Assembly (NCBI GenBank): GCA_017744365.1
Contig: JAGIBL010000001.1
Span: 803,416 to 867,415 of the forward strand
Direction: 5' to 3'
DNA: 64,000 bases
From: Nocardioidaceae bacterium
GTDB lineage: Bacteria > Actinomycetota > Actinomycetes > Propionibacteriales > Nocardioidaceae
Numbering within the stretch: the first letter of the stretch is position 1; every line of letters begins with the position of its first letter. Shown piece after piece: positions 55,397 to 63,994 of this stretch. The position numbers and the translations under genes are program-made. Below the pieces are notes generated by a model. That model made no database searches. It was not told where the DNA came from and saw only the letters and a list, made by a program, of their open reading frames with translations.

Positions 55397-56458
55397 ATGG
55401 ACCAGTCACCGTTGCGGGTCGTGATGTCCGCGCTCACCTTCGTGCCCGGGCACATGGGCGGCAGCGAGACCTACGCACGATCGCTGGCCACCGCGCTCGC
55501 CGGGCGCTCCGACGTCCACCTGACCACCGTCGTCACCGAGGCCGCGGCCGGCCTGCTGGCGCACGATGGCGAGGTGGTCGTCCCCGAGGTCACCGGGGGA
55601 GCGCGCGCGCACCAGCGGGTGCGCACCCTGGTGCAGGCGGCCCGCCGGCGTCGCGCGCTGCCGTCCGGCGTCGTGCACTACCCGTTCACGGTGCCGCTGC
55701 CGGGTGCCGCCGGGCCGTGGGTGACGTCCCTCCTCGACGTGCAGCACCGCGACCTGCCCGACATGTTCGGTAGGCCGGAGCGCTGGTATCGCACCTTCGC
55801 GTACGACGGCGCGGCGCGGCGGGCGAGCCGGGTGCTGACGATCAGCGAGTTCGCGCGCGAGCGGATCGTGGCGACCCTCGGCGTCGACCCGGCGCTCATC
55901 GACGTGGCGCCCCTGGGGGTGGACCGCACGGTGTTCACGCCCGAGCCGGTCGAGAGGTTGCCGTTCGTGTACTACCCGGCGGCTGCGTGGCCGCACAAGA
56001 ACCATGAGGGACTGCTCGCCGCGATGGAGATCCTCAGGCGCGGCCGCCCGGAGGTGCGTCTGGTCCTCAGCGGCGGAATGCAGGAGCAACTCGGGCCGCT
56101 GCCCGCCTGGGCCGAGCACCGCGGTCACCTGACCGGGGCCGAGGTCCTCGCGCTGTACCGGTCCGCGGCCTGCCTGGCCTACCCGAGCCGGTACGAGGGG
56201 TTCGGGCTGCCGCCCCTGGAGGCGATGGCGGTCGGCACTCCGGTCGCCGCCTCCGCGGTGGCCTCGATCCCGGAGGTGTGCGGGAACGCCGCGATCCTGT
56301 TCGACCCTGACGACCCCCGCTCGATCGCTGCGGGCGTCGAGCAGGCGATCGGCGCTGGGGACAGGCTGCGTGACCTGGGACTGAAGCGCGCGGCCGAGTT
56401 CACCTGGGAGCGTTGCGCCGAGGCGCACGTGGCGAGCTACCGGGCCGCGGCGCGTTGA
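55397..56458 (+). CDS. Family 4 glycosyltransferase (GT-B fold)
   Basis: A 353-residue transferase. The N-terminal Rossmann domain begins VVMSALTFVPGHMGGSETYA, the glycine-rich acceptor loop. The C-terminal donor domain has FVYYPAAAWPHKNHEGLLAA and ALYRSAACLAYPSRYEGFGL, followed by PPLEAMAVGTPVAASAVASI, the E-x7-E region that retains nucleotide sugar in GT4 enzymes. It is a lone plus-strand gene between two minus-strand operons and convergent with the aminotransferase gene. It would add one sugar, from an NDP donor, to a lipid-linked or surface glycan. The sugar cannot be read from sequence. Confidence 0.93.
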   Translation: MDQSPLRVVMSALTFVPGHMGGSETYARSLATALAGRSDVHLTTVVTEAAAGLLAHDGEVVVPEVTGGARAHQRVRTLVQAARRRRALPSGVVHYPFTVPLPGAAGPWVTSLLDVQHRDLPDMFGRPERWYRTFAYDGAARRASRVLTISEFARERIVATLGVDPALIDVAPLGVDRTVFTPEPVERLPFVYYPAAAWPHKNHEGLLAAMEILRRGRPEVRLVLSGGMQEQLGPLPAWAEHRGHLTGAEVLALYRSAACLAYPSRYEGFGLPPLEAMAVGTPVAASAVASIPEVCGNAAILFDPDDPRSIAAGVEQAIGAGDRLRDLGLKRAAEFTWERCAEAHVASYRAAAR

Positions 56459-56461
56459 GGT

Positions 56462-57583
56462 TCACGCTGCCAGGATCGAGACCAGCTCCTGGCACACCCG
56501 GTCGACATCACCCTCGGACAACGAGAGTGCGCTCGGGAGGTTCAACCCGTAGGGGCTCAGGCGGTAGGCGACGTCGTTGCGCTGCCGTGCGAGGGCGGCC
56601 TGGGGTTCGTCCGCGTACGCCGGCAGCGAGCTGAGCGGGCGGAAGAGCGGACGCGTGTCGATGCCGACGGCGGCGAGCCGGTCCTGAAGCTCGTCCTTGT
56701 CCAAGCCGATCTCCGGGTCGACCTGGGCGGTGACCATCCACCAGACCACCCCTGGGTTGGGACTGGCGTAGATGCGCAGCTCGGACCGGTCGCCGAGCCG
56801 GTCCTCGTACCAACCGTGCAGCCGCCTCTTCAGGGCGACGAGCTCGTCGATGCGCTCGAGCTGGGCGAGCCCGAGCGCGGCCTGGAGCGAGCTCATCTTG
56901 TACTTGAACGCGACCTCGGCGTTGTTGAACGCCCGGTCGCCCGGACGCCGGCCGTGGTCACGGAGCTGGTCCACTCGGTCGGCGAGGGTGTGGTCATCGC
57001 ACACCAGCATGCCGCCCTCACCTGTGGTCATCGTCTTGGAGCCGTGGAAGCTGAACGCACTGAACGCGCCGTAGGTCCCGGCAGGCCGACCGTCGAGGCT
57101 GGAGCCGATGGCTTCGGCAGCGTCCTCGATCAGGGCAACGCCTGCTTCGCGGGTCACGGCCTCGATCGCCGCCATGTCAGGCATCGCGCCGTACAGGTCC
57201 ACCACGATGACGGCTTTGGTGCGAGGGGTGAGGCAGGCACGGACCGACTCCGGTGTCGCGCACAGCGAGTCCGGGTCGACGTCGGCGAAGACCGGGGTCG
57301 CACCGACGTACGCGATCGGTGCCGACGACGCTATCCAGGTGAGATCGGGCACGATGACCTCGTCGCCGGGGCCGATGCCGAGCGCACGCAGGGCCAGGTG
57401 CAAGCCGGACGTGCAGGAGGGAAGGGAGACTGCGTGTCGACGCCCGAGGTAGGTGGCGAACGCCTCCTCGAACCGGACGACCGGTGCACCGGCGCCGTCG
57501 TACCAGGCGTTCGCAACAGCGTCCTGGACGTAGGCAATCTCCTTGGCGGTGATGGAGGGGCCGGCAATCGGGACGCGCTTCAT
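56462..57583 (-). CDS. DegT/DnrJ/EryC1/StrS sugar aminotransferase, perosamine-synthase-like
   Basis: A 373-residue PLP enzyme that puts an amino group on a keto sugar nucleotide. Hallmarks are KRVPIAGPSITAKEIAYVQD, HAVSLPSCTSGLHLALRALG, PGDEVIVPDLTWIASSAPIA, VALIEDAAEAIGSSLDGRPA and the PLP lysine in FSFHGSKTMTTGEGGMLV. The sequence is closest in style to GDP-perosamine synthases and other C4 aminotransferases. With the NeuD/PglD-like acetyltransferase at 58267 the product is probably a 4-acetamido (or other acylamido) 4,6-dideoxy sugar. It is the last gene of the coupled operon, six bases after the preceding stop. Confidence 0.93.
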   Translation of the reverse strand: MKRVPIAGPSITAKEIAYVQDAVANAWYDGAGAPVVRFEEAFATYLGRRHAVSLPSCTSGLHLALRALGIGPGDEVIVPDLTWIASSAPIAYVGATPVFADVDPDSLCATPESVRACLTPRTKAVIVVDLYGAMPDMAAIEAVTREAGVALIEDAAEAIGSSLDGRPAGTYGAFSAFSFHGSKTMTTGEGGMLVCDDHTLADRVDQLRDHGRRPGDRAFNNAEVAFKYKMSSLQAALGLAQLERIDELVALKRRLHGWYEDRLGDRSELRIYASPNPGVVWWMVTAQVDPEIGLDKDELQDRLAAVGIDTRPLFRPLSSLPAYADEPQAALARQRNDVAYRLSPYGLNLPSALSLSEGDVDRVCQELVSILAA

Positions 57584-57589
57584 CGCCGA

Positions 57590-58270
57590 TCAGTCCTGCA
57601 TGCAGCGGAGGTATCCGCCCGGCGCCGTGGTGATCGCCAGCCGCCGTTCCAGCTCGGTGTCGACCTCGAACCGTGAGCTCTCGGCGACGAAGGCCGCAGC
57701 AGCGGTGCGCGGATTGTCGGCGGAGGTCCACGGACGGTCCGGGTAGAGGTCGTCGGGCAGGTCCGCGATCACCGTGTCGAGGACGACCACGTAGCTTCCG
57801 GCCGAGACCAGGGGGGAGTAGGCACGCAGCTCCGCCAGCACGTGATCGTGGGTGTGCATCGAGTCGAGGATGACGAGCACCGGTGCGGCATCACCGACCT
57901 CCTCGTGGACTTTCCGCACGATGTCGCTGTCGATCGACGAACCCTCCAGGAGCCTCATCCGGTGCCGGAGCGGGTGCTCGTCCAGCGCTTCTCGGTTGTG
58001 CTCGCGGATGTCGATGTCGACGCCGATGACGCGCCCGGGCCCGCCGATCAGCTCCAGCATCGACGCGCTGAAGACGAGGGACCCGCCGTGCGCGATGCCC
58101 GTCTCGACGATCACCTGGGGACGAATCCGCCAGATCAGCTCTTGGATCGCGATCATGTCCTGGGGGTACTGGATGACCGGCCGTCCTAGCCAGGTGAAGT
58201 TGTAGGAGTAGCGCTCGCGCACGCTCTCCTCCATCCACTGGCGGGAGAGCGACTCGAAGGGGGAGCTCAC
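57590..58270 (-). CDS. CmcI-like SAM-dependent methyltransferase
   Basis: A 226-residue protein of the cephalosporin-hydroxylase (CmcI)/rhamnosyl O-methyltransferase family. The conserved YSYNFTWLGRPVIQYPQDMI is followed by the SAM-binding VIVETGIAHGGSLVFSASML, RVIGVDIDIREHNREAL, LLEGSSIDSDIV and LVILDSMHTHDHVLAEL. Family members methylate sugar hydroxyls or act in antibiotic synthesis, so sugar O-methylation is the best guess. GTG at 58270 overlaps the upstream stop by four bases. It is the sixth gene of the sugar operon. Which hydroxyl is methylated is unknown. Confidence 0.88.
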   Translation of the reverse strand: MSSPFESLSRQWMEESVRERYSYNFTWLGRPVIQYPQDMIAIQELIWRIRPQVIVETGIAHGGSLVFSASMLELIGGPGRVIGVDIDIREHNREALDEHPLRHRMRLLEGSSIDSDIVRKVHEEVGDAAPVLVILDSMHTHDHVLAELRAYSPLVSAGSYVVVLDTVIADLPDDLYPDRPWTSADNPRTAAAAFVAESSRFEVDTELERRLAITTAPGGYLRCMQD

Positions 58271-58920
58271 GTTGGTTTCCTCAGCTCTCGTGCGGGGTTT
58301 CCAACCACCGTCGTTCCGGGTGGTACGTCGTGCAGGACCACGGCGCCGGCGCCGATGGTGGCACCCGCGCCGACATGGACGCGGGGGAGTACGACGGCGC
58401 CGGCACCCACGAACGCGAAGTCGTCGACCCGGACCAGCCCGCTCAGGTGCGCACCGGGGCCGATGTGCACGCCCGCACCGAGCTCCGCCTCGTGGTCGAC
58501 GGTGGCGGCGGTGTTGACGATGCTCTGGGGCCCGACTGTCGCCGCTTCGCACACCGCTGCCATCGCCAGGACCTGGGATCCCGGTGCGCAGACCGCGCCT
58601 GAGGCGACGAAGGCCCGCGGGTGGACCACGGAGTACGGGCTCATTCCCGAGCCCGTCAACTTCTGCTGAAGAGCGATCCGGTCCCGTCCGCGGTCGCCTC
58701 CGACGGCGACGACGAAGCCGATCCGGCTGGGGTCCCCGCGCTGGGCGAGCCACCTCTCCAGCGCGTCGTGTCCGGTGTAGAGGGGGACGTCGTCGAAAGG
58801 CGCATCGAGGTCACGGTTGTCGAAGACCGCGCAGACCTCGGGCGCGTTCGGACCCAGGGCGTCCCGGACGACTTTCGCATGCCCGGCAGCACCCCAGATC
58901 ACCAGGCCTTCCACCGTCAC
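58267..58920 (-). CDS. NeuD/PglD-like sugar O/N-acyltransferase
   Basis: A 217-residue acyltransferase. The N-terminal Rossmann part LVIWGAAGHAKVVRDALG is the NeuD/PglD signature. The C-terminal half is a left-handed beta-helix built of hexapeptide repeats (GAVCAPGSQVLAMAAVCEAA, ELGAGVHIGPGAHLSGLVRV, HVGAGATIGAGAVVLHDVPP), ending VVGNPARELRKP. The catalytic histidine is probably in NTAATVDHEAELG. PglD-type enzymes N-acetylate the 4-amino group of UDP-amino sugars; here the partner is the aminotransferase at 56462. The GTG start overlaps the epimerase gene stop by four bases. Confidence 0.92.
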   Translation of the reverse strand: MTVEGLVIWGAAGHAKVVRDALGPNAPEVCAVFDNRDLDAPFDDVPLYTGHDALERWLAQRGDPSRIGFVVAVGGDRGRDRIALQQKLTGSGMSPYSVVHPRAFVASGAVCAPGSQVLAMAAVCEAATVGPQSIVNTAATVDHEAELGAGVHIGPGAHLSGLVRVDDFAFVGAGAVVLPRVHVGAGATIGAGAVVLHDVPPGTTVVGNPARELRKPT

Positions 58921-59456
58921 GGCACGTCTCCGAGGAACGGGGCACCTGCGTCACGATCGGAGATCGACGTGACCTCGAGCGGCCAGCTGATGCCGAGCGC
59001 CGGGTCACGCCAGCTGATCGTGCGAGCACTGGCCGGCTCGTACGGAGTGCTGATGAGGTAGACGAGGGTGCTGTCGTCACTTGTCGTCTGGTAGCCGTGG
59101 GCGACGCCCTTCGGGACGTGCAGCGCAACCGGCTCCGCGTCCGTGAGCTCGACCGAGATCCAGGTCAGGTACGTCGGCTCCGAGGGCCGCACGTCGACCA
59201 GGACGTCGTACACCGACCCCGACTCGCACCAGAGGGTCTTGGCCTCCTCGTGCGGTGCGTCCTGGTAGTGCAGACCGCGCACCGTGCCGCGCTGGATGTT
59301 GTGGGCCGAAGCGACGTAGGCAGCCTCGGGGTCGTCCACGGTCGTGCGGAGCAGGCCGAGGTCGACCTGGCGAGAGAATCGTCCACGTTCGTCGGTGCTG
59401 GTCGACCCATGCAACAGGTAGGCCCCGCGGATCGACAGCGCCTCGGCCGCGCTCAC
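58917..59456 (-). CDS. dTDP-4-dehydrorhamnose 3,5-epimerase family protein
   Basis: A 179-residue cupin of the RmlC family: DERGRFSRQVDLGLLRTTVD, ASAHNIQRGTVRGLHYQDAP (the RGLHYQ motif with catalytic histidine), VYDVLVDVRPSEPTYLTW, VPKGVAHGYQTTSDDSTLVY. In a pathway starting from CDP-glucose it would epimerise C3 and/or C5 of the 4-keto-6-deoxy intermediate. GTG at 59456 overlaps the upstream methyltransferase stop by four bases. It is a little shorter than RmlC, with a normal core. Confidence 0.92.
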   Translation of the reverse strand: MSAAEALSIRGAYLLHGSTSTDERGRFSRQVDLGLLRTTVDDPEAAYVASAHNIQRGTVRGLHYQDAPHEEAKTLWCESGSVYDVLVDVRPSEPTYLTWISVELTDAEPVALHVPKGVAHGYQTTSDDSTLVYLISTPYEPASARTISWRDPALGISWPLEVTSISDRDAGAPFLGDVP

Positions 59457-60700
59457 CGGGTCACCTTCCTCATCTCCGGCACCGCGACCCAGCAGGCGGC
59501 CGCGGGTGCCAGCGCGGCCACCAGCTCGACGAGCTCTGTCTCGATGTTCCACGGCAGCAGCAGCACGTCGGCCGGGTCGGTCTCTGCCAGCGCCGATGGT
59601 GCCACGACCGGGACGTGCGAACCGGGCAGGAGCCGACCCACCTTCTCCGGGCTGGCGTCCGCGACGACCCGCAGGAACGACGCGTTGTCGCCGACCGCGT
59701 TGAGCAGCGTGTTCCCCTTGGCCGCGGCTCCGTAGCCGACGACCACGTCACCGGCGTCGTGGCGAGATTGCAGCCAGCCACGCAGACCCTCGACCGTCTG
59801 CAAGCACTCGCGCGCGAAGGCCTGCCACGCCGCCGGGTCGGTCAGGCCGCGGCGGCGGTCGTCCTCGATCGCCGCGCCCACGGAGGCATCTGGAACGTCG
59901 GCTCCGCGGCGCCGTAGCCAGTAGCGCAGCGAACCTCCGTGGGTCGGCAGCCGCTCGACCCGCACGAGGACGAGGTCGTGTCGTCGAGCCAGCGCGTCGA
60001 CCGATGTCGCGGAGAGGTAGCTGAAGTGCTCGTGATAGATCGTGTCGAACTGCCTGCCCGCGAGCAGCTCGGTCAGCGTCGGGTTCTCGATGGTGACGAC
60101 GGTGTCGGGCCCGCACAGCCCGGCCAGCCCGGAAACGAAGTCGTCGAGGTCCGGGACGTGGGCGAGCACGTTGTTGGCGGCGACCAGGCGCGGAACGCCG
60201 TGCTCGGCGACCAGTTGCTCGGCGGCGGCTCGGCCGAAGAACGTGCACGTCGTCGGGATCCCGGCGGCTCGCGCGATCGCGGCGACGTTGCCGGCAGGCT
60301 CGACGCCGAGGACCCGGTGGCCCATGTCCTGGAAGCCCTTCAGGAGGTGGCCGTCGTTGCTGGCGATCTCGACCACGAAGTCGTCGTCGCGGAGTGCGAG
60401 CTCGGTGCGCATGTGCGTCGCGTAGGTACGAACGTGCTCGAGCCAGACGCTGCTCATGGAGGACAGATACGGATAGTCGCCGAAGATCTCCTCGGGTGAC
60501 ACGAACTCGCCCACCTGGCCCAGCGAGCAGACCGCGCAGATCCTGAGGTGGAGCGGGTAGACGGGATCGGGGTCGGTGGCCTCGCGTAGCAACCTGTTCG
60601 CCAACGGCTGGCTTCCGAGGTCGAGCACGGAGCGCAGGTCGTCGGAACCACAAGCCCGGCAGATCCGCGTGCCGCGGGGACTCAGCTCACCGGTGTTCAT
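59453..60700 (-). CDS. Sugar C-methyltransferase (TylC3/NovU-like)
   Basis: A 415-residue SAM-dependent enzyme of three parts. The N-terminal zinc-binding domain has TRICRACGSDDLRSVLDLGS and RICAVCSLGQVGEF (four cysteines). The middle is a Rossmann methyltransferase with VVEIASNDGHLLKGFQDMGH and VLGVEPAGNVA. The C-terminal nucleotide-type domain has VVGYGAAAKGNTLLNAVGD. This is the architecture of NDP-sugar C3-methyltransferases such as TylC3 and NovU, which methylate carbon 3 or 5 of 4-keto sugars. ATG at 60700 is preferred to 60706 because GAGG is seven bases upstream. It overlaps the dehydratase gene by 14 bases. Confidence 0.93.
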   Translation of the reverse strand: MNTGELSPRGTRICRACGSDDLRSVLDLGSQPLANRLLREATDPDPVYPLHLRICAVCSLGQVGEFVSPEEIFGDYPYLSSMSSVWLEHVRTYATHMRTELALRDDDFVVEIASNDGHLLKGFQDMGHRVLGVEPAGNVAAIARAAGIPTTCTFFGRAAAEQLVAEHGVPRLVAANNVLAHVPDLDDFVSGLAGLCGPDTVVTIENPTLTELLAGRQFDTIYHEHFSYLSATSVDALARRHDLVLVRVERLPTHGGSLRYWLRRRGADVPDASVGAAIEDDRRRGLTDPAAWQAFARECLQTVEGLRGWLQSRHDAGDVVVGYGAAAKGNTLLNAVGDNASFLRVVADASPEKVGRLLPGSHVPVVAPSALAETDPADVLLLPWNIETELVELVAALAPAAACWVAVPEMRKVTR

Positions 60701-61781
60701 CGACATCCTCGGTCGCCAGGCACGCGTACGCACGCAGCTGCTCGAGGAGCACCGCGGAGGCGTCGGCTCCCCGGCGGAATTGGACGTACCAGTCGACCGC
60801 CATCGACACCGCCGCCTGCCAGTCGAGCCGGCTGCGCCAGCCGAGCACCTCGGTCGCCTGCACCGAGTCGATGGTGAGCGCTTCGGTCTCGACCATGCTC
60901 GGCTTCGGACGGACCACCGACGCCGGCGTGGGGACCTCGAATGACGTCGCCCACTCACGGGCGGCCAGATCCACGACCTCCCGGACCGAGACCGCCTGTT
61001 GTGCCGACGGACCGAAGTTCATGGTTCGCGGCAGGCTCGGCTTCGCAGCGAGTGCCTCGACATAGACCAGATACCCGCTGAGGGGTTCGAGGACGTGCTG
61101 CCAGGGCCGGGTCGCGTCGGGGTGGCGAAGCTCCACAGTGGCACCGGCGGACCAGCCGCGCACCAGATCGGGGACGAGTCGGTTGCTGCCCCAGTCACCG
61201 CCGCCGATCACGTTGCCCGCGCGGGCCGTGACGACGGGACATCCGACGGCTGGCCACGACCCGACCACCAGCTCGGCGCCCACCTTGCTGGCTGAATACG
61301 GGTCCTTGCCGCCCAGGCGCGACCTCTCGTCGTACGGCGTCGGGCCGGTGCTGTCGTAGACCTTGTCGGTGGTCGCGACCAGTACGGCCTCCACCGATGC
61401 GAGCGAGGGCACGGTGTCGAGCAGGTTTGCAGTCCCGAGCACGTTGGTGGCGAAGGTTCGATACGGGGCCGCGAAGCCCTCGGAGACCAGCGGCTGAGCG
61501 GCGAGGTGCAGCACGACCTGGGGGTCGAAGTCGGCGACGGCGCCCTTCCAGCTCTCGGAACAGATGTCCGCGCGGAGGTCCAGGGCGAGGTCGACGCCGA
61601 GGCTGTCCCACAACGCAGGATCGGTGACAGGCTCGGGAAGCGACAGCCCAGCTGTCTCGGCCCCGAGCTCCTGGAGCCAGGCCGCGAGCCAGCTGCCCTT
61701 GAATCCGGTGTGGCCGGTCAGCAGGACCCGCTTGCCGTGCCAGTACGCACGGGTCGGCACACGTGGCCGCTCTTCGGTCAT
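60687..61781 (-). CDS. rfbG: CDP-glucose 4,6-dehydratase
   Basis: A 364-residue extended short-chain dehydrogenase. The NAD motif is RVLLTGHTGFKGSWLAAWLQ, as in RfbG. The catalytic Tyr-x3-Lys is in DPYSASKVGAELVV, and the TDKVY signature in VLVATTDKVYDSTGPTPYDE. It makes CDP-4-keto-6-deoxyglucose, entry point to 3,6-dideoxy- and branched CDP-sugars. The ATG overlaps the stop of the cytidylyltransferase gene by four bases, so the first two pathway genes are coupled. Length is normal for the family. Confidence 0.96.
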   Translation of the reverse strand: MTEERPRVPTRAYWHGKRVLLTGHTGFKGSWLAAWLQELGAETAGLSLPEPVTDPALWDSLGVDLALDLRADICSESWKGAVADFDPQVVLHLAAQPLVSEGFAAPYRTFATNVLGTANLLDTVPSLASVEAVLVATTDKVYDSTGPTPYDERSRLGGKDPYSASKVGAELVVGSWPAVGCPVVTARAGNVIGGGDWGSNRLVPDLVRGWSAGATVELRHPDATRPWQHVLEPLSGYLVYVEALAAKPSLPRTMNFGPSAQQAVSVREVVDLAAREWATSFEVPTPASVVRPKPSMVETEALTIDSVQATEVLGWRSRLDWQAAVSMAVDWYVQFRRGADASAVLLEQLRAYACLATEDVDEHR

Positions 61782-62539
61782 CGAGCCGTCCAGGGTGCGT
61801 CGCCACGGTCCCAGAGCTCGTTCAGCTCGTCGCGGTCGCGAGCCGTGTCCATCGCCATCCAGAAGCCGTCGTGACGGTAGGCGGCGAGCTGGCGTCGCGC
61901 GGCCAGCGTCTCCATCGGTTCCTGTTCCAGGCCGGGCTCGTCGACGAGGAGGTCGAGGATCTCGGGCTCCATCACGAAGTAGCCGCCGTTGACCCAGCTC
62001 GAGGGGTCCGCGGGCTTCTCGGAGAAGCCCACGACCCGCTCGTCCTCGACCGAGAGGGCTCCCCAGCGAGGGAGCGGATGCACCGCGGTGACTGTCGCGG
62101 TCGCGCGCTGGACGCGGTGGTGCTCGATGAGCGCGTCGATCGGGATGTCGGCGAGACCGTCGCCGTAGGTGAGCATGAAGGTGTCGTCGAGGAAGCGCTC
62201 GAGGCGCTTGATCCTGCCGCCCGTCTTGGTGTCCTGACCGGTGTCGACCAGCGTCACCCGCCAGTTCTTGGCCGGCTGGGACAGCAGCTCCACCGACCCG
62301 GTGTCGAGGTCGACCCGGATGTCGGACTCGTTCGCGCGGTAGCGGCTGAAGTACTCCTTGAGCACCTCGCCCTTGTATCCGCAGGCGACGATGAAGTCGT
62401 CGAAACCGTAGGCCGCGTAGCGACTCATGATGTGCCAGATGATCGGGCGGCCGCCGATGCGGACCATCGGCTTCGGGATCGCGTGCGTCTCCTCCGAGAG
62501 CCGCGTCCCCCGGCCCCCCGCCAGGATGACGACCTTCAC
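61778..62539 (-). CDS. rfbF: Glucose-1-phosphate cytidylyltransferase
   Basis: A 253-residue nucleotidyltransferase making CDP-glucose: KVVILAGGRGTRLSEETHAI, PKPMVRIGGRPIIWHIMSRY, DDTFMLTYGDGLADIPIDAL and SEKPADPSSWVNGGYFVMEP. The pattern is that of RfbF, distinct from dTDP-glucose pyrophosphorylases. GTG at 62539 has GGAGGAGGAC upstream at good distance. It is the first gene of a seven-gene coupled operon (rfbF, rfbG, C-methyltransferase, epimerase, acyltransferase, CmcI-like enzyme, aminotransferase) and divergent from the flippase gene. Confidence 0.96.
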   Translation of the reverse strand: MKVVILAGGRGTRLSEETHAIPKPMVRIGGRPIIWHIMSRYAAYGFDDFIVACGYKGEVLKEYFSRYRANESDIRVDLDTGSVELLSQPAKNWRVTLVDTGQDTKTGGRIKRLERFLDDTFMLTYGDGLADIPIDALIEHHRVQRATATVTAVHPLPRWGALSVEDERVVGFSEKPADPSSWVNGGYFVMEPEILDLLVDEPGLEQEPMETLAARRQLAAYRHDGFWMAMDTARDRDELNELWDRGDAPWTAR

Positions 62540-62665
62540 CTGAGTCCTCCTCCATGCGCCCACCGGCGCCCCGGCTTGAGGCTAACCTTTCGATTGCGCT
62601 CCCGCTCATCTTCGCGGACTTCGACATCGAGACGGGGCAGACACTCAGATGGAGACGAAGCTGAC

Positions 62666-63994
62666 GTGAAGCGGCTCCCAGGCGCGGTCCACGATCGAGC
62701 GATCGTGGCGACGCTCATCGCGGGTGTCGGGTCCCAGGTGGCGGTCGCGGTGTCCACACTGGTGGCACTGCCGTTCGTGACGCGCAGCCTCACCCCGCCC
62801 GAGTTCGGGGTGTTCACCACACTGACCGGGTTCGTGGTGCTTCTCTCCTTCGCCGACTTCGGTGTTGGTGGTGCTCTGGCCACGCGGCTCGCGGAGGCAC
62901 GCGGACGAGACGATGCCGGGGCGTCCAGGACCGCGGTCGCCACCGCCGTTCTCGCCTCCTGCGCGCTGGGCGCGCTGGTGGCCGGAGTGCTGCTGGTCTC
63001 GGTGTGGGTGCTGCCGTGGCGCTCGCTGCTCGGTGCTGAGGCCGTCAGCGCCGCCGACCTCGACGCGGCCCTGGTCGCGATGGCGTTCGCCGTCGGCGCC
63101 TCGGTCCCGGCGGGCATCGGCCAACGCATGCTGTACGGCGTGCACCGAGGCGGGCTGGTGAACGTGCAGCTGCTGGTCGGCGCGGTGGCGACGGCGGCGC
63201 TGCTGATCCTGGCGGCCGCGTTGTCCTGGTCCCTGCCGGTCTTCGTACTGCTCGCGCTGGCGCCGCAGGTGCTGGTCGGGGTCTCGTGCGGCGTCACCGC
63301 GGTGCGGCTCGCTCCCGTGCTTGCCCCTCGGTGCCGGCACGCCAGCCTGACGGAGTGGAAGGCCCTGAGGGCCTCGATCGGGTGGTACTTCGCCATCGGC
63401 GTCGCAGGTGCGACGAGCTTCCAGACCGATGCGCTGATCGTGTCCGGCGTCCTCGGCGCGGCGACCGCCGGAGTATTTGCGGTTGCGGTGCGGGTCTACG
63501 GTCTGGTCACGCAGTCGCTCTACCCGGCGATGATGCAGCTGTGGCCGGCCTTCGGCGAGGCGTACGGGCGTGGGGATGCGGGGTGGATCCGGTCCCGGCT
63601 CGTGCGAATCACGGCGCTCGCTGGTTCGCTGTCACTGGTGGCCGGCCTGCTCGTGGTCGGTGTTGGACGCCCGGTCATCGAGGCCTGGCTCGGCTCGGAC
63701 CTGGTACCGGAACGAGGGCTGCTGGTCGCCCTGACGTGCTGGACCGCCTACAGCCTGATGAGCGCGCCGAGCTTTCTGCTGCTGAACGCGTCCGGGCGCG
63801 TGCACGTGCACGCGCTATCGGCGATCGCGGTCGCGGTCGCCAACCTCCCGATCTCGTTGGTGCTCACCCACGCCGTCGGCATCTCGGGCCCGGTGTGGGG
63901 GAGCCTCATCGCGAGCGCCGCCTTCTCAGCACCCGTCGGAGTCGTCGCGGTTCGCCGGACACTTCACGAGGTCGCGCAACGCGCGGAAGCGTGA
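62666..63994 (+). CDS. Polysaccharide flippase (Wzx/MATE-like)
   Basis: A 442-residue membrane protein with about 12 helices and few charged residues in them. The start region LIAGVGSQVAVAVSTLVALP, VTRSLTPPEFGVFTTLTGFV and SFADFGVGGALATRLAEA is characteristic of Wzx/RfbX-type polysaccharide flippases, which move lipid-linked sugar units across the membrane. Basic loops alternate as expected. GTG at 62666 is chosen with GGAG 11 bases upstream. It is divergent from the CDP-sugar operon and is probably the exporter for the unit made there. The stop is six bases before the window edge, so its neighbours are unknown. Confidence 0.9.
   Translation: MKRLPGAVHDRAIVATLIAGVGSQVAVAVSTLVALPFVTRSLTPPEFGVFTTLTGFVVLLSFADFGVGGALATRLAEARGRDDAGASRTAVATAVLASCALGALVAGVLLVSVWVLPWRSLLGAEAVSAADLDAALVAMAFAVGASVPAGIGQRMLYGVHRGGLVNVQLLVGAVATAALLILAAALSWSLPVFVLLALAPQVLVGVSCGVTAVRLAPVLAPRCRHASLTEWKALRASIGWYFAIGVAGATSFQTDALIVSGVLGAATAGVFAVAVRVYGLVTQSLYPAMMQLWPAFGEAYGRGDAGWIRSRLVRITALAGSLSLVAGLLVVGVGRPVIEAWLGSDLVPERGLLVALTCWTAYSLMSAPSFLLLNASGRVHVHALSAIAVAVANLPISLVLTHAVGISGPVWGSLIASAAFSAPVGVVAVRRTLHEVAQRAEA

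What the first reader, a model, noticed from the sequence alone, without database searches (positions are those of the whole stretch)
56462..62539. Seven-gene operon for an apparently undescribed CDP-activated branched amino sugar
The order is rfbF, rfbG, a TylC3/NovU-like C-methyltransferase, an RmlC-like epimerase, a NeuD/PglD-like acyltransferase, a CmcI-like methyltransferase and a perosamine-synthase-like aminotransferase, all but the last junction overlapping. CDP-glucose would become CDP-4-keto-6-deoxyglucose, be epimerised and C-methylated, aminated at C4, acylated and perhaps O-methylated. Branched-chain sugars made by such C-methyltransferases are usually dTDP-linked, and 4-acylamido sugars are usually UDP-, dTDP- or GDP-linked. 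Combining these steps on a CDP sugar is unusual, and I know no product that fits. No 3-dehydrase (RfbH) is present, so it is not a classical 3,6-dideoxyhexose route. A flippase is divergent from the operon.
Basis: partly seen in the sequence, partly recalled or inferred. Interest (0 to 1): 0.8.

Follow-up and report, generated by a model that had tools for sequence, protein, structure and literature searches.

The report
CDP pathway for kansosamine-like branched sugar
The seven genes are a real operon, conserved in other phyla, that most likely makes a CDP-activated, C-methylated, N-acylated amino sugar for the cell surface; the predicted product resembles N-acylkansosamine, already known from Mycobacterium kansasii, so the sugar type is probably not new, but I found no paper that assigns its pathway.

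Summary
In detail: seven co-directional genes, five overlapping junctions and one 6-bp gap. It is no chance neighbourhood: a Bacillota genome has the same seven in the same order, beside flagellar genes (L187). In eight loci found through the aminotransferase (AT) alone, CmcI is present in 8, C-methyltransferase (CMT) and RmlC in 7, RfbF in 6, RfbG in 5, NeuD in 3. Four related clusters carry a sugar N-formyltransferase between RmlC and CmcI, where the window has NeuD, which supports amine acylation.

C-methylation of a CDP sugar is common: 35 of 80 CMT loci have RfbF, RfbG and RmlC nearby, and in 20 of 28 examined a ketoreductase-like SDR comes next. Here NeuD, CmcI and AT stand instead. And a product fits: N-acylkansosamine (structure recalled). 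A locus matching the published M. kansasii lipooligosaccharide cluster carries RfbF-RfbG-RmlC-CMT-AT, and its AT falls in one clade with the window's. I found no paper assigning these genes to such a sugar (open-licence text only). Stereochemistry, methyl positions, acyl group and nucleotide are inferred. New variant of a known kind.

The parts
61778..62539 (-). RfbF: glucose-1-phosphate cytidylyltransferase, makes CDP-glucose
   Evidence: TIGR02623 341 bits over cut-off 300; 50% identical to the RfbF of L187
60687..61781 (-). RfbG: CDP-glucose 4,6-dehydratase, makes CDP-4-keto-6-deoxyglucose
   Evidence: TIGR02622 344 bits over cut-off 278; best PDB match 1wvg CDP-glucose 4,6-dehydratase 2.8e-68; YSASK and TTDK present
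59453..60706 (-). Sugar C-methyltransferase (TylC3/TcaB9 type), probably at C3
   Evidence: PF08421, PF13489, PF08484; PDB 4rv9, 5t64, 3ndi at 3e-74 or better; YHEH at residue 224
58917..59456 (-). RmlC-like 3-, 5- or 3,5-epimerase
   Evidence: PF00908; His, Asp and Tyr of the RmlC active site (roles recalled) aligned with 1pm7 and 1dzr; below the TIGR01221 rhamnose-pathway cut-off, 116 vs 155.75
58267..58920 (-). NeuD/PglD-type N-acyltransferase, predicted to acylate the 4-amine
   Evidence: TIGR03570 172 bits over cut-off 161; PDB 4m98 and perosamine N-acetyltransferase 4ea7; a PF00551 formyltransferase lies between RmlC and CmcI in L094, L184, L185, L188
57590..58270 (-). CmcI-like methyltransferase, predicted ring O-methylation, probably O-2
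   Evidence: PF04989 291 bits; present in 8 of 8 AT-centred loci at 54-56% identity
56462..57583 (-). DegT-family aminotransferase, predicted C4 amination
   Evidence: PF01041; PLP lysine in FSFHGSKT; 22-row clade 100/100, mostly CMT-linked aminotransferases
62642..63994 (+). Divergent flippase-like membrane protein, likely export of the surface glycan
   Evidence: Homologs with PF01943/PF13440, five named O-antigen/teichoic acid export membrane protein; no direct Pfam match
55397..56458 (+). Convergent group 1 glycosyltransferase, candidate user of the sugar
   Evidence: PF00534, PF13439
51982..55409 (-). Further glycan genes: two family 2 glycosyltransferases, a DUF2142 membrane protein, a DUF2304 protein
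   Evidence: Pfam

Best explanation
The operon makes a CDP-activated 4-acylamino-4,6-dideoxy-3-C-methylhexose, probably 2-O-methylated: a kansosamine-type sugar for a surface glycan. RfbF makes CDP-glucose and RfbG CDP-4-keto-6-deoxyglucose (families shown, activity inferred). While the 4-keto group is present, the RmlC-like enzyme inverts C5 and/or C3 and the C-methyltransferase adds a methyl group, most likely at C3 (inferred; the chemistry needs the 4-ketone, so it precedes amination). The aminotransferase then turns the 4-ketone into an amine (inferred from clade and lysine), where commoner relatives of the module carry a ketoreductase-like SDR. NeuD acylates the amine (inferred; supported by a sugar N-formyltransferase at the matching place in four related clusters). 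The CmcI-like enzyme methylates a ring hydroxyl (inferred: it is present with either acylating enzyme). Neighbouring glycosyltransferases and the flippase would use and export the product (inferred from position).
For: Same seven genes, same order, in a Bacillota genome (L187 4110-10314; 39-56% identity per gene). Eight AT-centred loci outside this genome: CmcI 8, CMT 7, RmlC 7, RfbF 6, RfbG 5, NeuD 3 of 8 (two of the five RfbG hits are weak, 126 bits in L185 and 111-114 in L186). PF00551 formyltransferase between RmlC and CmcI in L094, L184, L185, L188. RfbF and RfbG over equivalog cut-offs. CMT closest to solved sugar 3-C-methyltransferases. AT in one clade (100/100) with CMT-linked ATs, including those of L160, L162, L163 and L164, separate from the one perosamine synthase used, 3bn1. 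Gene order of L160 matches Table 1 of PMC4403928 but for one strand.
Against: No chemistry exists for this organism. The genome also has Gmd and RmlB at other loci, so GDP- and dTDP-keto sugars may be available. Related clusters vary: L182 has a radical SAM protein in the RfbG place and a methyltransferase, not an acylating enzyme, between RmlC and CmcI; L183 lacks RfbF and RfbG; L189 lacks CMT, RmlC, RfbF and RfbG within the 20 kb held; L115 lacks CmcI; the ORFs between RmlC and CmcI of L186 were not annotated. At the mycobacterial LOS locus the tailoring genes differ: ATP-grasp, SDR and TylF-like methyltransferase instead of NeuD and CmcI. Five ATs near both CMT and RfbF fall outside the clade, and two of the 16 clade rows with known context are not within 8 kb of both.
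Confidence: 0.62

Rival explanations
1. Two sugars, not one: RfbF, RfbG, CMT, RmlC (and CmcI) make a CDP 3-C-methyl sugar, while the aminotransferase and NeuD make N-acylperosamine from GDP-4-keto-6-deoxymannose supplied by the Gmd encoded elsewhere.
For: Best PDB match of the AT is a Caulobacter perosamine synthase (7.5e-85), and the perosamine N-acetyltransferase 4ea7 is the second-best for NeuD; the genome encodes Gmd over its cut-off; many of the 120 listed AT homologs are named perosamine synthetase by a source.
Against: AT and NeuD lie in one operon with the CDP genes; the same set recurs in other phyla; the AT lies in a clade separate from 3bn1 with its own motif; without the AT the CDP branch in this operon has no enzyme for C4.
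Confidence: 0.15
2. The methyl group goes to C5 (as recalled for NovU in noviose) rather than C3, giving a 5,5-dimethyl 4-amino sugar.
For: C3- and C5-methyltransferases are one family (recalled), and an RmlC-like enzyme adjoins.
Against: The ten PDB sequences matched are named D-mycarose 3-C-methyltransferase, sugar 3-C-methyl transferase or TcaB9. NovU itself was not compared.
Confidence: 0.1
3. The route runs on dTDP sugars made elsewhere (RmlB is present), and RfbF/RfbG serve another purpose.
For: RmlB over cut-off on another contig; the characterised C-methyltransferases use dTDP sugars (recalled).
Against: RfbF and RfbG are first in the operon, exceed their own equivalog cut-offs and lie within 12 kb of the CMT in 38 of the 80 CMT loci examined.
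Confidence: 0.05

Closest known systems
N-acylkansosamine of Mycobacterium kansasii lipooligosaccharide (Hunter et al. 1984, only the title seen, in a reference list; LOS cluster in PMC4403928, passages)
   Same: Predicted modifications coincide (3-C-methyl, 2-O-methyl, 4-N-acyl, 4,6-dideoxy; structure recalled). L160, L162, L163 and L164 share RfbF-RfbG-RmlC-CMT-AT; L160, the one annotated further, matches the published locus order.
   Different: RmlC and CMT swap order; ATP-grasp, SDR and TylF-like methyltransferase stand where the window has NeuD and CmcI; AT only 43% identical.
CDP-vinelose of Azotobacter vinelandii (recalled; one search found no paper held)
   Same: A CDP-linked 3-C-methyl-2-O-methyl-6-deoxyhexose (recalled), showing that CDP and C-methylation combine in nature.
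   Different: C4 hydroxyl rather than C4 acylamino group (recalled); its genes were not examined here.
Widespread RfbF, RfbG, CMT, RmlC, SDR module
   Same: First four genes shared: 35 of the 80 CMT-centred loci have RfbF, RfbG and RmlC within 12 kb of the CMT.
   Different: In 20 of 28 examined loci the next ORF is an epimerase/reductase SDR; the window has NeuD, CmcI and AT.
GDP-perosamine synthase and perosamine N-acetyltransferase (Caulobacter; organism recalled)
   Same: Nearest solved structure of the AT and second-nearest of NeuD.
   Different: GDP substrate (recalled); 3bn1 has FSFFGNKI where the window clade has FSFHG[S/T]KT.
TylC3 and TcaB9 sugar 3-C-methyltransferases
   Same: Same family; YxEH motif kept in the alignments shown.
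   Different: Act on dTDP sugars in antibiotic pathways (recalled).

Membership tests
CDP-4-keto-6-deoxyglucose-derived pathway | Glucose-1-phosphate cytidylyltransferase | tested here: met
   TIGR02623 over cut-off
CDP-4-keto-6-deoxyglucose-derived pathway | CDP-glucose 4,6-dehydratase | tested here: met
   TIGR02622 over cut-off; PDB 1wvg
CDP-4-keto-6-deoxyglucose-derived pathway | CDP product formed | not testable with these tools
   needs enzyme assay
N-acylkansosamine-type sugar | Gene of the sugar 3-C-methyltransferase family | tested here: met
   family and nearest structures; position of methylation not shown
N-acylkansosamine-type sugar | 4-aminotransferase of the clade found in the kansosamine-type LOS loci | tested here: met
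   22-row clade, 100/100, holding window, L160, L162, L163, L164; that these ATs make kansosamine is itself inferred
N-acylkansosamine-type sugar | N-acylating enzyme | tested here: met
   NeuD over TIGR03570 cut-off; another family than the ATP-grasp at the LOS locus
N-acylkansosamine-type sugar | O-methyltransferase | tested here: inconclusive
   CmcI family PF04989; the rhamnosyl O-methyltransferase model NF045824 is far below its cut-off, 99 vs 400
N-acylkansosamine-type sugar | L-manno configuration and substituent positions | not testable with these tools
   needs product NMR
GDP-perosamine synthase | Groups with a characterised perosamine synthase | tested here: inconclusive
   3bn1 is sister to, not inside, the window clade (99/96 for the join); only one characterised sequence was used
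3,6-dideoxyhexose route | RfbH with His in place of the PLP Lys | tested here: not met
   Window AT has Lys; 8 of the 10 AT rows near RfbG but not near a CMT have SFYPAHH with His
RfbF, RfbG, CMT, RmlC, SDR module | 4-ketoreductase-like SDR after CMT/RmlC | tested here: not met
   NeuD follows RmlC in the window

The most novel reading that the evidence does not exclude
A previously unassigned, cross-phylum operon type for CDP-linked 4-acylamino-3-C-methyl-4,6-dideoxyhexoses, with an interchangeable N-acyl/N-formyl position and its own aminotransferase clade, used for surface polysaccharides in the window's actinobacterium and probably for flagellin glycosylation in a Bacillota genome; the same aminotransferase clade would explain how mycobacteria make kansosamine.
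Probability: 0.5. Interest if true: 0.62.

Novelty: new variant of a known kind. Interest (0 to 1): 0.5.

Why it matters
It gives a concrete, testable gene set for a rare sugar class (branched 4-acylamino sugars on a CDP carrier), marks an aminotransferase clade that could identify such pathways, and suggests gene candidates for kansosamine, whose biosynthesis I did not find assigned in the open-licence papers that I could search (and the passages).

Tried and rejected
Chance neighbourhood: rejected by the same order in L187 and by the AT-centred counts. Classical dideoxyhexose route: rejected (no RfbH in the operon; Lys motif). Local conservation: not a genus trait. A CMT match occurs in 6 of 58 relatives including this genome, and the short loci around the others show different neighbours; the AT at E <= 1e-95 occurs in 1 of 294 genomes of the family, this one alone, although the protein database holds 71% and 67% identical ATs named from a Marmoricola and a Nocardioides. 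I treat the operon as accessory; G+C gives no sign of recent import (0.69-0.70 over the operon, 0.66-0.76 over the window). Plasmid records: 79 hold partial DNA similarity to the CMT gene, 54 of them Sinorhizobium, none covering 80% of it; tblastn of the CMT at 1e-80 found none and of the AT two at 42-44%; not pursued. The sibiromycin cluster (sibirosamine, a recalled 3-C-methyl-4-amino sugar) could not be checked: the paper is not held. Vinelose: no paper held. The in silico virenose paper PMC3539893 (passages) weighs GDP and TDP routes and did not help; nor did PMC12961483 (passages). Right of the flippase I scanned four of the ORFs: three have no Pfam match, one is a histidine kinase; the others were not scanned. 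Structure prediction and fold search were not used.

Selection effects: L047-L126 are the best 80 of at least 593 CMT relatives, so those counts hold for that set only. From the search of G327's genus (98 of 248 genomes matched) I fetched 20 regions of my choosing, mostly high-scoring; Pfam was run on L160, L165 and L159 only. L094 and L115 came from the CMT search and are not counted in the 8 AT-centred loci. L183-L189 are not in the trees. Of the 35 loci with RfbF, RfbG and RmlC, 28 had a suitable next ORF and were scanned.
Full report
THE OBSERVATION. Family searches support each name: RfbF and RfbG exceed the curated equivalog cut-offs for glucose-1-phosphate cytidylyltransferase and CDP-glucose 4,6-dehydratase; the C-methyltransferase (CMT) has the three domains of the sugar C-methyltransferases; NeuD exceeds the NeuD/PglB/VioB cut-off; the RmlC-like protein is in its family but below the rhamnose-pathway cut-off, which would suit another substrate. 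Residues checked by alignment or pattern are in place: YxxxK and TTDK in RfbG, YHEH in CMT, the His/Asp/Tyr set of RmlC, the PLP lysine of the aminotransferase, AT (which of them are catalytic is recalled). The divergent ORF is flippase-like through its homologs only. Four contig lengths (17496, 22418, 103056, 4495819) occur both among AT homologs and flippase homologs, which suggests, without proving it, that the two share contigs elsewhere.

THE CORE IS COMMON. Of the 80 CMT-centred loci returned (best 80 of at least 593), 38 have RfbF and RfbG within 12 kb of the CMT, 35 of them RmlC as well, 13 a CmcI-like gene, 3 a NeuD and 4 an AT of 280 bits or more (thresholds CMT, RfbF and RfbG 200 bits, RmlC 60, NeuD 80, CmcI 150). 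Of the other 42, 14 have RfbF only, 4 RfbG only, 24 neither. Starting from RfbG instead, 33 of 394 genomes of the class carry it, this one included; in the 32 regions fetched from the other genomes, 21 have no CMT and 7 have RfbF, RfbG, CMT and RmlC. In 28 of the 35 loci a same-strand ORF follows CMT/RmlC directly; 20 of the 28 match the epimerase/reductase family PF01370, one is an AT and one a PglD-type acyltransferase. So the usual end product is probably a 3-C-methyl-6-deoxyhexose with a C4 hydroxyl, as recalled for CDP-vinelose; the window replaces ketoreduction by amination (inference).

THE FULL SET IS CONSERVED. To avoid choosing loci by the CMT, I searched with the AT alone. Matches: 2 of 396 genomes of the phylum including this one (E <= 1e-100); 5 of 295 in the phylum of L094 (Nitrospiraceae), 4 new (E <= 1e-105); 4 of 296 in the order of L115 (Cohnella lupini), 3 new. 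In these eight new loci, L182-L189, CmcI is present in 8, CMT in 7, RmlC in 7, RfbF in 6, RfbG in 5 and NeuD in 3 (RfbG scores only 126 bits in L185 and is split in L186). L187 has RfbF-RfbG-CMT-RmlC-NeuD-CmcI-AT in exactly the window's order, with identities of 50, 39, 42, 40, 47, 56 and 56%, and is followed by FliD, FliS and, further on, a ribosomal S30AE/HPF-type gene, which points to flagellin glycosylation there. L184 and L185 have the same order with a sugar N-formyltransferase (PF00551 and PF18216) in place of NeuD; L188 and L094 also carry PF00551 between RmlC and CmcI, with other genes beside it. The exchange of NeuD and N-formyltransferase beside a constant AT is the best evidence that NeuD acts on the new amine; the constancy of CmcI suggests that it methylates the ring, not the acyl group. 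Exceptions: L182 has a radical SAM/SPASM protein in the RfbG place and a methyltransferase between RmlC and CmcI; L183 lacks RfbF and RfbG; L189 has only AT, CmcI and NeuD of the set in the 20 kb held; L115 lacks CmcI.

THE AMINOTRANSFERASE. A 41-row tree puts the window AT in a 22-row group with 100/100 support, beside the perosamine synthase 3bn1. Sixteen of the 22 rows have known context: 14 (window included) lie within 8 kb of both CMT and RfbF, two do not (L155, L176). 21 of the 22 share FSFHG[S/T]KT; L155 differs. Of the 10 AT rows near RfbG but not near a CMT, 8 have His for the lysine, the RfbH signature (recalled). Against a simple story, five other ATs near CMT and RfbF fall outside the group (L067, L075, L086, L099, L177), the CMT-linked label needs 7 changes on the tree (shuffled mean 11.4), and several outside rows sit on long branches. 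In a smaller tree without this background 3bn1 sat on a very long branch and said little.

THE KNOWN PRODUCT THAT FITS. PMC4403928 (passages with Table 1, and the Discussion) says that M. kansasii LOS-IV to VII contain N-acyl kansosamine and lists in the LOS cluster, in order: a glycosyltransferase (27425), an epimerase/dehydratase marked c (27430c), a glycosyltransferase (27435), a glucose-1-phosphate cytidyltransferase (27440), an epimerase/dehydratase (27445), a 'rhamnose epimerase' (27450), a methyltransferase (27475) and a polyketide synthase (27485); no entry stands between 27450 and 27475. One difference: the glycosyltransferase beside the SDR is also on the complement strand in L160, while the table marks only 27430 with a c. 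If tags step by five, the four unlisted genes would be CMT, AT, ATP-grasp and SDR (inference). L162, L163 and L164 repeat RfbF-RfbG-RmlC-CMT-AT; with L160 these are 4 of the 20 regions that I picked from that genus. The structure of kansosamine (2-O-methyl, 3-C-methyl, 4-acylamino, 4,6-dideoxy-L-manno) is recalled; I saw only the title of Hunter et al. 1984 in a reference list. The window product is thus best called kansosamine-like; identity with kansosamine is not claimed.

SUBSTRATE AND RIVALS. The host genome encodes Gmd and RmlB over their cut-offs at other loci, so GDP- and dTDP-keto sugars are possible. Operon overlap, cross-phylum order and clade membership favour the CDP route. The position of C-methylation, the outcome of epimerisation, the O-methyl position and the acyl group remain open.

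NOVELTY. My searches (open-licence PubMed Central text only, listings and the passages named) showed no paper that assigns such an operon. That is weak evidence of absence, since most papers of subscription journals are not held. New variant of a known kind.

Noticed in passing
L182:5192-6358 (-): A radical SAM/SPASM protein occupies the RfbG position between RfbF and CMT in an otherwise similar cluster; it might replace or alter the dehydration step.
   Followed up: partly
L165, L166, L168: Loci with CMT, RfbF and AT (AT 50-53% identical) but no RfbG hit at RfbG strength; in L165 an SDR and a 332-aa ORF without Pfam match precede the AT.
   Followed up: partly
L187:10636-15223: The seven-gene operon lies directly before FliD, FliS and an HPF-like gene, suggesting a flagellin glycosylation island.
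   Followed up: partly
L006-L009, with L011-L014 (relatives of the same genus and order): CMT next to a 31-41% RfbF-like nucleotidyltransferase and a second, divergent CMT nearby, with RmlC in three of these four genomes and no strong RfbG match in the short loci: apparently another branched-sugar cluster type.
   Followed up: no
L117:12913-13758 and L188:5225-6073: PhyH-type oxygenases inside CMT/AT sugar clusters.
   Followed up: no
L094:13106-13816 and L107:14851-16335: WbqC-like proteins beside CmcI/AT in two clusters.
   Followed up: no
L186:16430-17247: The RfbG match is split over two short ORFs; possible frameshift or sequencing error, only described.
   Followed up: no
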